Source of the DNA: Bradyrhizobium mercantei
Lineage (GTDB): Bacteria; Pseudomonadota; Alphaproteobacteria; Rhizobiales; Xanthobacteraceae
DNA length: 64,000 bases
Assembly: GCF_001982635.1 (NCBI RefSeq)
Contig: NZ_MKFI01000002.1
Location: 371,964 to 435,963 of the forward strand
Reading direction: 5' to 3'
This document shows positions 3,637 through 7,797 of this stretch, piece after piece; positions within the stretch are counted from its first letter, which is position 1, and the number at the start of each line of letters is the position of its first letter. The notes under the pieces are model-generated. The model did no database searches. It was not told the DNA's origin and worked only from the letters and a program-made list of their open reading frames with translations. The position numbers and the translations under genes are program-made.

Positions 3637-5070
3637 ATGACACCGCATCAATCCTCTTCCCAACCCGTGCACATCGTGGGCGCGGGGCTCGCCGGCTCGG
3701 AAGCCGCCTGGCAGGTCGCCAATGCCGGCGTCCGCGCCGTGCTGCATGAAATGCGCCCGCACCGGATGACCGAAGCGCACCGGACCGAGGGCTGCGCCGA
3801 ACTGGTCTGCTCGAATTCCTTCCGCTCCGACGACGCCGCCAACAACGCGGTCGGGCTGCTGCACGCCGAGATGCGGCGGCTGGGCTCGCTCATCATGCGC
3901 TCGGCCGATGCCAACCAGGTGCCCGCCGGCGGCGCGCTGGCGGTCGACCGCGACGGCTTCTCCGCCGCCGTCACCAGGGCGCTCAACGAACACCCGCTGA
4001 TCGAGATCAGCCGCGAGGAAGTCGCAGGGCTGCCGCCGGCCGACTGGAGCAACGTCATCGTCGCAACCGGTCCCCTCACCTCGGCGCCGCTCGCCGACGC
4101 GATCAGGCAGCTGACCGACGAGAACGCGCTGGCGTTCTTCGATGCGATCGCGCCGATCGTGCACAAGGATTCCATCGATATGTCGGTGGCCTGGTTTCAG
4201 TCGCGCTACGACAAGGTCGGCCCCGGCGGCACCGGCGCCGACTACATCAACTGCCCGATGACGAAGGAGCAATATGACGCCTTCGTCGCGGCGCTGCTCG
4301 ACGGCGAAAAGGTCGACTTCAAGGATTGGGAGACCAACACGCCCTATTTCGACGGCTGCCTGCCGGTCGAGGTGATGGCCGAACGCGGTCACGAGACGCT
4401 GCGCCACGGGCCGATGAAGCCGGTCGGATTGACCAATCCGCACAATCCTACCGTGAAGCCATACGCGATCGTCCAGCTGCGGCAGGACAACAAGCTCGGC
4501 ACGCTCTACAACATCGTCGGCTTCCAGACCAAGCTGAAGCATGGCGCGCAGCAGCGCGTATTCCGCACCATCCCGGGCCTTGAGAACGCCGAGTTCGCCC
4601 GCCTCGGCGGCCTGCATCGCAATACCTTCCTCAATTCGCCAAAGCTGCTCGACGCGCAGTTGCGCCTGCGCGCACAGCCGCGGCTGCGCTTCGCCGGCCA
4701 GATGACCGGCTGCGAGGGTTACGTCGAATCGGCCAGCGTCGGCCTGATCGCCGGCCTCTGCGCCGCCGCCGACATGCGCGGCACCGCGCTGACGCCACCG
4801 CCGGCCACCACCGCGCTCGGCGCGCTGCTCGGCCACATCACCGGCGGCCATATCGAAACGATCGAAGCCGGTTCGCGCTCGTTCCAGCCGATGAACATCA
4901 ATTTCGGTCTGTTCCCGCCGCTGGCCAGTGCACCGACCAAGAAGCCGGACGGCTCGCGGCTGCGCGGCAACGAGAAGACCGTCGCCAAGAAGCAGGCGCT
5001 CAGCGCGCGAGCGCTCGCCGATCTCGACCACTGGATCGCAGAACATCTGCGCGTTGCGGCAGCGGCCTGA
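3637..5070 (+). CDS. trmFO: Methylenetetrahydrofolate-tRNA-(uracil-54-C5)-methyltransferase
   Basis: A 477-residue TrmFO, the folate- and FAD-dependent enzyme that makes m5U54 (ribothymidine) in the T-loop of tRNA, in the cytoplasm. The FAD-binding Rossmann motif GAGLAG is at residues 15-20. The conserved cysteines appear at C53/C58 ([10 protein letters not shown]), C206 (YINCPMTK) and C241 ([14 protein letters not shown]); the last corresponds to the FEGCLP catalytic region of the family. The C-terminal half keeps the GCEGYVES and GLIAGL motifs. Length is slightly above the usual 430-470. The kinase-like gene follows after 5 nt, so the two may be cotranscribed. Confidence 0.95.
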
Positions 5071-5075
5071 CAGTC

Positions 5076-6179
5076 ATGAGCTTGCCGAAAGACGACGACG
5101 CCACCCTGTCGGCGCGATGGAATCAGGGCGTCCTGCTCAAGCGCGACGTGTTCTCGACCGTCGAGCGCGGCCGCTTCCGCACCGATGACGGCGAGGTCGA
5201 CGGCGTGCTGCGCCGGCTCGATCAGGTGCCGTTCTGGTCGTTCGGATTGGCGCTGCATCTGTTCTCGCGCGAACGCCGCGCGCTGACCCTGGCGCGCGAC
5301 CTCGACGTCGGGCCGAAGCTGTTGTGGGCGGGCCGGCGCGCGCTGGTGCGCGGCTTCATCGATGGCGCGGCGCTGCATCTGGCGAAGCCGCACGGCGACG
5401 TCGCCTATTTCCGTTCCGCCAAGGCCGCGTTGCGCAAACTGCATCGCGCCGGCATCTGCCACAACGACCTCGCCAAGGAGCAGAACTGGCTGGTCGGCCG
5501 CGACGGCCGCGCCTATCTCACCGACTTCCAGCTCGCCGCCTGCTTCAAGAGCCGAAGCCGGCTGTTCCGCATCGCGGCCTATGAGGATCTGCGCCACCTT
5601 CTCAAGCACAAGCGCAGCTACGCACCGGAGGCGCTGACGCCGATGGAGCGCAAGGTGCTCGCGAAGAAGTCGGCGGCCGCCAGCATCTGGCTCAAGACCG
5701 GCAAGAAGGTCTACCAGGCGATCACGCGCGGCATCTTCAATTTCACCGACCGCGAGGGCGGCGGCCGCCGCCTGGTCAACGACGCTCCGGTGCTGGTCGA
5801 TCTGATCCGCAGGAATCCCGACGTGCGCGACACCGCGATCGTCGCCTTCGCCGACCGCCGCGTCGGCGTCGGGCTTTATGCATTTGTCGAAGCGGACCAG
5901 TCCGCGCTGGAGAAGACGCTGCGCAACGAGCTTGCCGCGGCCAAGGGCGTCAAGCCGCCGGAGCACATCCAGATCGTGCACGCCTTGCCGCGCGATGCGG
6001 CCGGCAAGCCGCGCACCGAAATCCTGCAGCTCGTTGCGATGAACCAGATCGACCTGATCGAGCCGATGATGCGCAGCGACGCCGATCGCGAGTTCCTCAA
6101 GGACATCCTCGAGCAACGCAAGAATCTGCGCGATCGCTTCAATTTTGAAGTGGCCGAGATGGATCGGCCCGCCGGCTGA
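5076..6179 (+). CDS. Kinase-like protein fused to an AMP-binding-enzyme C-terminal-type domain
   Basis: A 367-residue protein. Residues about 15-215 look like a small protein-kinase/WaaP-RIO-like fold: a catalytic loop HNDLAKEQN (D131, N137; HxDxxxxN pattern) and a metal-loop motif TDFQLA (D150, with Gln where kinases have the Gly of DFG). Residues about 238-325 look like a different domain, the C-terminal cap of acyl-CoA synthetases/ANL enzymes: LIRRNPDVRDTAIVAFADRR, then VGLYAFVE, then HALPRDAAGKPRTEIL. K311 sits where ANL enzymes have their adenylation lysine. No ANL N-terminal adenylation domain is present in the gene or next to it. The gene lies 5 nt after trmFO. The substrate is unknown. 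Automated annotation would probably stop at 'serine/threonine kinase'. Confidence 0.75.
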   Translation: MSLPKDDDATLSARWNQGVLLKRDVFSTVERGRFRTDDGEVDGVLRRLDQVPFWSFGLALHLFSRERRALTLARDLDVGPKLLWAGRRALVRGFIDGAALHLAKPHGDVAYFRSAKAALRKLHRAGICHNDLAKEQNWLVGRDGRAYLTDFQLAACFKSRSRLFRIAAYEDLRHLLKHKRSYAPEALTPMERKVLAKKSAAASIWLKTGKKVYQAITRGIFNFTDREGGGRRLVNDAPVLVDLIRRNPDVRDTAIVAFADRRVGVGLYAFVEADQSALEKTLRNELAAAKGVKPPEHIQIVHALPRDAAGKPRTEILQLVAMNQIDLIEPMMRSDADREFLKDILEQRKNLRDRFNFEVAEMDRPAG

Positions 6180-6272: not shown

Positions 6273-6557
6273 ATGCCACTCACCCGCGGCCGTATCGGGG
6301 GATATGATTCCGAACGACTGGCGTTCGGATTCACCATGATGCACGGCGACCAGGAAGTTGAATGCCAGATCAGCGACGCCGCAATGGACGAACTGGCCGG
6401 CACGCGTGGAACAGCGAGCATGGCGCGGCAGGCGCAATTCGTCGCGTTGCGCGATGCGGTCGAGCAGATTGCATCCGACATTTATGACAGCGGCCCGATG
6501 GTCAAGGGCGTAACGGTCCGGATCTTCACCAAGCACATCTCGAAGGAGCCGAGCTAG
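6273..6557 (+). CDS. DUF1488 family protein
   Basis: A 94-residue cytoplasmic protein matching the DUF1488 pattern: early GYDSERLAFGFTM, then VECQISDAAMDEL, then FVALRDAVEQIASDIYD and a beta-strand near the C-terminus. No biochemical role is established for the family. It ends tail-to-tail with the squalene/phytoene-synthase-like gene, the two stop codons overlapping within 6554-6557. Confidence 0.8.
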   Translation: MPLTRGRIGGYDSERLAFGFTMMHGDQEVECQISDAAMDELAGTRGTASMARQAQFVALRDAVEQIASDIYDSGPMVKGVTVRIFTKHISKEPS

Positions 6558-7417
6558 CTACCGAACTCTTCGGTGCGCGCGGCTCGCCACAACGTCCAGA
6601 GCGCGCGCAGGCGTGACACCGGTTTCGGCAGGAACGGATCGTTATCGGCCCTCCTCGCCCGGTTCAGCTCGCGCCTGACATGAGCGAGCGGCAGGAAGAT
6701 CGGCCGCACGCCGGACGGCACATCGGCAAGCAGCCCGAATGCGGTCTTGAGATGGCCTTGGGCCTCGTCCGCAAGCTGATCGATCGCAGCGCGGATATTC
6801 GGCGTCGGCTTGCCGGCAAACACCTCATCCTTGCTGCTGCCGTGCTGTTGCAACAGCTGTAACGGCAGGAACAGCTGCTGCCGCGAGGCGTCGCGGCCAA
6901 GCGTCGCGATGACCTGCGCCATGCCCTGGGCAAGGCCCGCATGACGGGCCAGGTGATCGATCGCCTCCGATGGCCGCGCCACCACGCGCGTGGCCTGCGA
7001 GAACAGCGCCGCCGCGGTGGCGTCGAGATAGCCCTCGAGCGCGGCCAGCGTCGGCATCGGGTCGTTGTAGAGATCGAACTGATGCTCCTCGACCAGCTGC
7101 GAGAACGGCGACACCGGCAGGCGGTGATTGCGGATCGCATAAAGCAGTTCCGCCGCGACCGGATTGCCCTCGACGCCGCCGCGCCCCGTGCCCGCCAGCA
7201 TGTCGGTCCACCATTGCAGCCGCATCTCGCCGGGCAGCGGCTGGCTGACCTGTTCGTGCACGCGCGAGACCTCGATATTGAAGGCATACATCGCGAGCAA
7301 TGCCCGGCGTTCCGGCGCCGGCAGGAACAGGGTCGACGCGTAGCGCACGAAGTCGTGGGTCCGCACCAGATCGGCGCAGAAGGCCGCCCCGTCCTTCGGC
7401 GCCTCCGTCGCGCTCAT
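6554..7417 (-). CDS. Squalene/phytoene synthase family protein (NDUFAF6-like)
   Basis: A 287-residue protein with the trans-isoprenyl-diphosphate-synthase fold: FVRYASTLFLPAPERRALLAMYAF near the N-terminus, RLQWWTDMLAG, and ATAAALFSQATRVV. The aspartate-rich DxxxD motifs that bind diphosphate in true squalene and phytoene synthases are not clear here: the first region reads AFNIEVSRVHEQ. That resembles the mitochondrial complex I assembly factor NDUFAF6 rather than a carotenoid enzyme. Its start overlaps the stop of the Mth938-like gene by four bases, so the two are translationally coupled. Downstream of yajC-secDF. A role in respiratory complex assembly is inferred from homology and neighbours, not shown. 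Confidence 0.75.
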   Translation of the reverse strand: MSATEAPKDGAAFCADLVRTHDFVRYASTLFLPAPERRALLAMYAFNIEVSRVHEQVSQPLPGEMRLQWWTDMLAGTGRGGVEGNPVAAELLYAIRNHRLPVSPFSQLVEEHQFDLYNDPMPTLAALEGYLDATAAALFSQATRVVARPSEAIDHLARHAGLAQGMAQVIATLGRDASRQQLFLPLQLLQQHGSSKDEVFAGKPTPNIRAAIDQLADEAQGHLKTAFGLLADVPSGVRPIFLPLAHVRRELNRARRADNDPFLPKPVSRLRALWTLWRAARTEEFGS

Positions 7418-7797
7418 GGCACCGCGATCAGCGCCGCCGCGACGCGCCGCCGCTCACCCAGCATGATGTTGTAGGTGCGGATCGCGGGGCCGGTCTGCAT
7501 CGGGTCGAGCACCACCCGCACCGCGCGCAGGGCCTCGCGCAGGCCCTTCGGCGGCACCCAAACCTCGGTGCCGCTGCCGACGATCAGCGTGTCGATCGCA
7601 TTGGCGGCCGCGAACACCTTTTGCAGCGTGTATTCGTCGATGTCCTGCGGCCTGGTCACCGGCCAGGCCCAGATCGCGTCAGGCAGGCACAGCAGCGAGC
7701 CGCGGTGCGACATATCGGCAAACGCGAAGCCGCCCTTGCCGTAGGCCTCGATCGGCGCCGACCTCGGAAGATGGGGAGCGTCCGAGGAGTTGCTCAT
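7414..7797 (-). CDS. Mth938-like domain protein (NDUFAF3-like)
   Basis: A 127-residue protein with the DUF498/Mth938 fold: APIEAYGKGGFAFADMSHRG, then IDTLIVGSGTEVWVPP, then GPAIRTYNIMLGERRRVAAALI. Human NDUFAF3, a complex I assembly factor, belongs to this family. It lies 5 nt downstream of secF and overlaps the NDUFAF6-like gene, so secretion genes and two assembly-factor homologues appear to share one transcript. No catalytic residues are known for the family. Confidence 0.8.
   Translation of the reverse strand: MSNSSDAPHLPRSAPIEAYGKGGFAFADMSHRGSLLCLPDAIWAWPVTRPQDIDEYTLQKVFAAANAIDTLIVGSGTEVWVPPKGLREALRAVRVVLDPMQTGPAIRTYNIMLGERRRVAAALIAVP

What the first reader, a model, noticed from the sequence alone, without database searches (positions are those of the whole stretch)
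5076..6179. Kinase-like fold fused to an acyl-CoA-synthetase-type C-terminal domain
Seen: residues 129-137 and 150-152 carry a HxDxxxxN catalytic loop and a D-F-Q metal-loop, and residues about 238-325 read like the C-terminal cap of ANL enzymes, with a Lys (K311) in the LPRDAAGK position. Known: the ANL cap normally works only with a large N-terminal adenylation domain, which is absent. Inference: the cap may have been reused, for example as an adenylate- or acyl-sensing domain for a small kinase, or it is a structural lookalike. Automated annotation would probably report only the kinase. The gene is 5 nt after trmFO, so it may be tied to tRNA or growth control.
Basis: partly seen in the sequence, partly recalled or inferred. 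Interest (0 to 1): 0.6.

Follow-up and report, generated by a model that had tools for sequence, protein, structure and literature searches.

The report
Kinase fused to dead acetyl-CoA-synthetase cap
A small bacterial kinase carries, fused to its end, a copy of the moving cap of acetyl-CoA synthetase that has lost its catalytic parts but is kept by evolution, so it probably now serves to regulate the kinase or guide it to its target.

Summary
The 367-aa ORF at 5076-6179 is a two-domain protein. Residues 1-230 are a small kinase whose catalytic residues are invariant in 161 of 161 distinct fused sequences and 6 of 6 kinase-only ones. Residues ~228-357 descend from the C-terminal domain of acetyl-CoA synthetase (Acs ~528-647), by profile, fold search and tree. 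NCBI already has a full-length family, PRK09188, named only as a kinase; five paper searches found no description of the fusion.

The catalytic-lysine position K311 is Lys in 83 of 89 sequences of the Bradyrhizobium set but in 10 of 72 outside it. The position of Acs R584 (CoA-binding, recalled) is not Arg in 44 of 49 representatives.

The cap is still selected: dN/dS 0.05-0.47 in 10 pairs, invariant fold residues, and two proteins with tandem caps.

The gene lies 5 nt after trmFO; that arrangement is widespread but not obligatory: one genome rated 100% complete has the kinase and no trmFO match.

Most likely: an active kinase with a catalytically dead Acs cap reused for docking or regulation. 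The substrate is unknown.

The parts
5076..6179 (+). whole fusion gene, 367 aa, NCBIfam PRK09188 (NF006620)
5076..5765 (+). kinase half, residues 1-230; same extent as the stand-alone PRK12274-type kinases (218-238 aa, start codons chosen by script) of other families
5139..5141 (+). K22, invariant, in the stretch where a Gly-rich loop would be expected (role inferred)
   Evidence: 161 of 161 fused and 6 of 6 kinase-only
5211..5213 (+). R46, invariant Arg at or next to the usual beta-3 Lys position (assignment inferred from spacing to E66)
   Evidence: 161 of 161 and 6 of 6; alignment to StkP
5271..5273 (+). E66, invariant, candidate alpha-C Glu (role inferred)
   Evidence: 161 of 161 and 6 of 6
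5460..5486 (+). catalytic loop HNDLAKEQN, residues 129-137
   Evidence: H129, D131, K134, N137 161 of 161
5523..5531 (+). DFQ metal-binding motif, residues 150-152
   Evidence: D150 and Q152 161 of 161; F151 49 of 49 representatives
5757..6146 (+). Acs-derived cap, residues about 228-357, aligned to S. enterica Acs about 528-647
5985..6014 (+). remnant of the ANL A10 loop, LPRDAAGKPR, residues 304-313; P305, R306, G310 and R313 kept in the family, K311 not
6117..6137 (+). conserved tail RKNLRDR, residues 348-354, corresponding to the last residues of Acs
   Evidence: R348 160 of 161, N350 158 of 161; Acs match runs to or near its end
3637..5070 (+). trmFO, upstream neighbour in a widespread tight arrangement

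Best explanation
An enzymatically active small kinase (distantly related to protein, RIO and Kdo/Bud32-type kinases) whose ancestor captured the last ~120 residues of an acetyl-CoA synthetase. Shown: kinase catalytic residues are invariant; the cap is Acs-derived; most members lost the Lys and Arg used for adenylation and CoA binding, yet the cap is under purifying selection and occurs in tandem in two proteins. Inferred: the kinase phosphorylates a substrate (protein or small molecule, unknown), and the cap works as a non-catalytic docking or regulatory module. In Acs this domain swings onto another domain and is also bound by an acetyltransferase; its best-kept loop, the A10 remnant LPRxxxGxxR, and the tail RxNLxDR would now contact either the kinase's own cleft or a partner protein.
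For: H129, D131, K134, N137, D150 and also K22, R46, E66: 161 of 161 distinct fused sequences (the window's included) and 6 of 6 kinase-only. Cap profile against solved structures: the 16 best sequences are all acetyl-CoA synthetases, E 8e-15 to 5e-10 (best 60 of 98 shown). Among the 30 best AMP-binding_C places of the own genome the 3 Acs copies score 65-66 bits, the next 41. Fold search of the weak whole model: about 228-350 matches Acs, best Z 8.8 over 111 residues. Tree: 49 caps plus 21 Acs separate from 26 other ANL caps, 100/87*; kinase tree separates 49 fused from 6 kinase-only rows by one branch, 99/97*. Kinase-only relatives end near the junction. Lost: Acs K609 position Lys in 4 of 49, R584 position Arg in 5 of 49. 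Kept: Y268, Q299, P305 161 of 161; R313 157 of 161. dN/dS of the cap 0.05-0.47 in 10 pairs. Tandem caps in L181 and L193.
Against: No activity, ligand or partner is shown. The whole-protein model is poor (mean pLDDT 47.7) and the cap-only model reaches 64.0, so kinase-cap contacts cannot be read. Of 1000 chains aligned only 8 reach Z 8, and the tool warns that Z under 8 may mean only a common arrangement. The pair with L134 has a cap dN/dS of 0.47, twice its kinase value of 0.22. One origin of all caps has weak support (31/88; 32% of bootstrap trees), because L137 lies unresolved beside Acs.
Confidence: 0.55

Rival explanations
1. Adenylate, acyl-AMP or acyl-CoA sensor: the cap still binds an Acs ligand and tunes the kinase.
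For: The domain is from an acyl-CoA-forming enzyme; the A10 loop residues P305 (161 of 161) and G310 (159 of 161) are kept.
Against: K311 varies outside Bradyrhizobium (10 K of 72); the R584 equivalent is Arg in 5 of 49; the sequence match starts at Acs about 528, after the A8 hinge (position recalled), though some structural alignments start at 519-520; in Acs most of the ligand site lies in the missing N-terminal domain (recalled).
Confidence: 0.13
2. Acs mimic read by the lysine acylation machinery: in Bradyrhizobium K311 in the motif PX4GK is acetylated by a Pat-type acetyltransferase and thereby switches the kinase.
For: PX4GK is kept in 83 of 89 sequences of the Bradyrhizobium set; PMC11619455 (passages) gives PX4GK as the acetylation motif of this enzyme family; the isolated S. 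enterica Acs C-terminal domain is a Pat substrate (PMC4053389, passages) and has been solved with a Pat domain (4u5y, title).
Against: Lys is missing in 62 of 72 homologues outside that set, so it cannot be the shared function; the 64 set members in alignment A1 are 82-98% identical to the window protein, so keeping K may be mere relatedness; in PMC4053389 the S. lividans domain was not acetylated, so the motif alone does not decide.
Confidence: 0.1
3. The cap docks on acetyl-CoA synthetase itself (or another ANL N-terminal domain) and brings the kinase to it as substrate.
For: Acs origin of the cap and retention of much of the A10 loop, which in Acs faces the N-terminal domain (mechanism recalled).
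Against: Not tested here; the residues K609, R584 and R606 are lost in most caps; Acs is widespread (recalled), so co-occurrence would tell little.
Confidence: 0.1
4. Accessory to TrmFO: the pair acts in tRNA methylation or its control.
For: In 154 of 159 loci with both genes in view the kinase starts -4 to 80 nt after the trmFO stop, 13 of them with a 4-nt overlap; in four loci of two other families it lies on the other side of trmFO.
Against: 47 of 132 family genomes with trmFO have no kinase match; G298 (100% complete, one contig) has the kinase and no trmFO match; in G206, G251 and G326 the two are on different contigs.
Confidence: 0.07
5. Passenger domain: the cap only stabilises the protein.
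For: Catalytic residues of the cap are lost in most members.
Against: R306, R313, R348 and N350 are nearly invariant (157, 157, 160 and 158 of 161) and two tandem duplications were kept.
Confidence: 0.05

Closest known systems
NCBIfam PRK09188 / NF006620, 'serine/threonine protein kinase' (equivalog)
   Same: Full-length match 1-359, 598 bits, over the cut-off of 490; this protein is a member
   Different: The family name mentions only the kinase; the Acs-derived half and its loss of catalysis are not in the name, and no paper holding either accession was found
NCBIfam PRK12274 / NF008910, stand-alone kinase of 219 aa
   Same: Kinase half homologous, 187 bits; all ten kinase positions examined are identical in 6 of 6
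   Different: Lacks the cap; found in two other families of the phylum; own protein far under the cut-off of 372
Acetyl-CoA synthetase AcsA, C-terminal domain (for example 4u5y chain D)
   Same: Sequence profile and fold over about 100-120 residues, including the C-terminal tail
   Different: No N-terminal adenylation domain; A10 Lys and the R584 Arg lost in most members; no recognisable A8 hinge (its position recalled)
Kdo/WaaP, RIO, Bud32 and StkP-type kinases
   Same: Catalytic loop and DFx motif; weak profile matches
   Different: The Pkinase and Kdo matches of the window protein are below curated cut-offs, as is Bud32 (24.3 against 125); DFQ for DFG, Arg at the beta-3 position; no such cap known to me (recalled)

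Membership tests
PRK09188 (NF006620) | score over curated cut-off, full length | tested here: met
   598.1 bits against 490, residues 1-359
Protein kinase (Pfam PF00069) | score over gathering cut-off | tested here: not met
   24.4 against 31.7 bits
Protein kinase (Pfam PF00069) | catalytic Asp, Asn and metal Asp conserved | tested here: met
   D131, N137, D150 161 of 161
Protein kinase (Pfam PF00069) | beta-3 Lys and DFG | tested here: not met
   Arg at R46 (position assigned by inference) and DFQ, invariant
Protein kinase (Pfam PF00069) | phosphorylates Ser/Thr of proteins | not testable with these tools
   needs biochemistry
Kdo/WaaP kinase (PF06293) | score over gathering cut-off | tested here: not met
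   13.6 against 21.3 bits
RIO kinase (PF01163) | profile match | tested here: inconclusive
   6 of 29 kinase halves match at E 0.01 or better, best 8e-5; the window's own does not
ANL enzyme C-terminal domain (PF13193) | profile match | tested here: met
   25.2 against 24.5 bits for the cap alone, 24 of 26 caps match at E 0.01; on the whole protein 22.6, under the cut-off
ANL enzyme C-terminal domain (PF13193) | cap fold | tested here: met
   about 228-350 aligned to Acs, Z up to 8.8, from a model of low confidence
Acetyl-CoA synthetase | N-terminal adenylation domain | tested here: not met
   kinase in its place; no AMP-binding N-domain among Pfam matches up to E 1
Acetyl-CoA synthetase | catalytic Lys 609 of A10 and Arg 584 | tested here: not met
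   Lys 4 of 49, Arg 5 of 49 representatives; the window protein has K311 but Ala 287 at the Arg position

The most novel reading that the evidence does not exclude
A kinase that acquired the moving half of acetyl-CoA synthetase as a built-in decoy of that enzyme: the cap recruits the kinase to acyl-CoA synthetases or to the acetyltransferase and deacetylase that handle them, wiring phosphorylation to acetyl-CoA metabolism; in Bradyrhizobium K311 would add an acetylation switch.
Probability: 0.15. Interest if true: 0.8.

Novelty: new variant of a known kind. Interest (0 to 1): 0.5.

Why it matters
ANL caps are known as halves of enzymes. Here one was cut out of a central metabolic enzyme, lost its catalytic residues in most members, and is kept as part of a kinase in 91 of 149 sampled genomes of the window's family and in a few other families of its class. 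It gives a clean case of a catalytic domain turned into a non-catalytic module, and a testable possible link between phosphorylation and acetyl-CoA metabolism in Bradyrhizobium and its relatives.

Tried and rejected
A cap-only job (32 sequences) reached 64.0 and was not searched by fold. No kinase chain is among the 50 rows shown in either fold search; the kinase half is therefore untested by fold, not shown to lack one. Neighbours of kinases away from trmFO were varied (HutD, pseudouridine synthase and DUF2867 by Pfam; flagellar and transporter genes by sight) and gave no common partner. No plasmid record matched the kinase half at E 1e-8. The 2005 survey PMC1262709 (passages) reports a RIO1 homologue in B. 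japonicum; whether it is this protein is unknown. PMC8409312 (passages) lists kinase and AMP-binding_C clans in one table of domain translocations, without this fusion in the passages seen. A second origin of the L137 fusion was considered: its cap is nearest to Acs, but its kinase branches at the base of the fused group; left open. Chance resemblance was rejected.

Full report
What is there. The ORF at 5076-6179 (+) encodes 367 residues and starts 5 nt after the trmFO stop codon. NCBIfam PRK09188, an equivalog named 'serine/threonine protein kinase', covers residues 1-359 at 598 bits against a cut-off of 490, so the full-length protein belongs to a known, named family. Pfam by its own cut-offs would report neither half on the whole protein (Pkinase 24.4 against 31.7; AMP-binding_C 22.6 against 24.5); the cap alone passes (25.2), as does its place in the genome search (26.1).

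The kinase half. Residues 1-230 correspond to stand-alone kinases of 218-238 aa (PRK12274 type) in two other families of the phylum, 43-50% identical over the matched stretch, which stop near the junction. Three weaker matches (L157-L159) entered no count. In 167 distinct sequences (161 fused, the window's included, and 6 kinase-only) K22, D24, R46, E66, H129, D131, K134, N137, D150 and Q152 never vary. The loop is HxDxxxxxN and the metal motif DFQ; the usual beta-3 Lys position seems to be an Arg (inferred from spacing and the StkP alignment). Weak profile links go to StkP, Rio2, Kdo/WaaP and Bud32. An active kinase is the simplest reading; that its substrate is a protein is not shown.

The cap half. 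A profile of 26 caps (of 49 fused representatives) finds acetyl-CoA synthetases first in the PDB, E 8e-15. Against 30 of the 47 AMP-binding_C places in the own genome (the 30 fetched), a profile of the 49 caps gives the three Acs copies 65-66 bits, aligned to or near their C-terminal ends, and the best other cap 41. The fold search, from a model of low overall confidence (pLDDT 47.7; blocks 50-84 between residues 241 and 350), lists Acs entries first, best Z 8.8, model 235-350. In a tree of 96 rows (49 caps, 21 Acs, 26 other ANL) caps and Acs form one side of a branch, 100/87*; 48 caps form a clade, 100/100*; L137 is unresolved beside Acs, so that one side for all 49 caps has only 31/88 support and appears in 32% of bootstrap trees. 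Two rows were left out of that tree, L015 (an Acs cut short) and L237 (an ANL cap below the match threshold), and the tool warns of few columns. In the kinase tree the 49 fused rows are separated from 6 kinase-only rows by one branch, 99/97*. One fusion event is the simplest account, not proven.

What the cap lost and kept. Numbered as S. enterica Acs by counting from K609, across indels: K609 is Lys in 4 of 49 representatives, R584 Arg in 5, R606 Arg in 4; Y560, Q597, P603 and L615 are kept in 49 of 49, G608 in 47. K311 over all 161 fused sequences: Lys 83 of 89 in the Bradyrhizobium set (the window, related-loci loci, three of them titled only by a higher taxon, and same-genus genomes) and 10 of 72 outside, where 15 residue types occur. 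Near-invariant residues unlike Acs, or in its tail, are R306 (157 of 161), R313 (157), R348 (160) and N350 (158); the last two are shared with Acs. dN/dS by counting in 10 pairs: cap 0.05-0.47, kinase 0.11-0.24; the highest cap value, 0.47, is from one pair (L134). Two proteins, L181 and L193, carry two caps in tandem, both of this family. The domain is therefore catalytically degenerate but maintained.

Distribution and neighbourhood. Full-length family matches: 91 of 149 family genomes at E 1e-40, a few of them cut by contig ends; 11 of 199 genomes drawn across the order, own genome included, 7 of them over the cut-off; two further genomes of the class, G426 and G896. No plasmid match to the kinase half. 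In 154 of 159 loci with both genes the kinase starts -4 to 80 nt after trmFO (127 within 20 nt, 13 with a 4-nt overlap); in one more it lies after trmFO but the gap was not measurable by the script; in 4 it precedes trmFO. The 159 are not independent: many are Bradyrhizobium and some are second fetches of one genome; among L160-L207 alone it is 39 loci, 29 within 20 nt. The wider order trmFO-kinase-SQS_PSY-DUF498-SecF-SecD-YajC is common (names of SQS_PSY and DUF498 by Pfam; trmFO; Sec names by sight). But 47 of 132 genomes with trmFO have no kinase match, and 6 of 91 with the kinase have no trmFO match; of these six, two (G293, G302) show a piece of trmFO beside the kinase on a short contig and G298 is rated 100% complete on one contig. 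So the pair is probably co-expressed where adjacent (inferred), without obligate dependence.

Mechanism. In Acs this domain rotates by about 140 degrees between two states, and the isolated S. enterica domain is acetylated by a Pat (PMC4053389, passages) and has been solved in complex with one (4u5y, title). I propose that the fused copy keeps that gift for docking: it regulates the kinase in cis or presents it to a partner. Ligand sensing through the old active-site residues is unlikely. K311 in a PX4GK motif (motif from PMC11619455, passages) could be an acetylation site in Bradyrhizobium.

Literature. Five searches found no description: family accessions (0 papers), kinase plus AMP-binding plus Bradyrhizobium (0), AMP-binding C-terminal plus kinase plus fusion (3; PMC8409312 checked by passages, the other two seen in the listing), trmFO plus kinase (64 papers holding 3 of 4 terms, 10 listed; PMC1262709 checked by passages) and ANL plus kinase domain (0). 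Two more searches concerned Acs acetylation. The library holds only open-licence papers.

Noticed in passing
L181:4981-6399 and L193:5755-7179: PRK09188-type kinases with two Acs-derived caps in tandem (474 and 476 aa); the second cap is up to 60% (L181) and 50% (L193) identical to single caps of other members.
   Followed up: partly
L217, L218, L219: The window's genome holds three acetyl-CoA synthetase genes whose caps have the same profile score of 97.2 bits.
   Followed up: no
L169 / L214 (G298): Genome rated 100% complete with the kinase fusion and no trmFO match; five further genomes of its genus code (g121) also lack a trmFO match.
   Followed up: partly
L137 / L200 (G426): A fusion whose cap still reads much like an Acs tail (acetate--CoA ligase 91 bits), either the slowest member or a second fusion.
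   Followed up: partly
window 6554-7797: An SQS_PSY gene and a DUF498 gene sit beside secF-secD-yajC in an order shared by many relatives.
   Followed up: no
window 6273-6557: Small DUF1488 ORF between the fusion gene and the SQS_PSY gene, matched in only part of the related loci.
   Followed up: no
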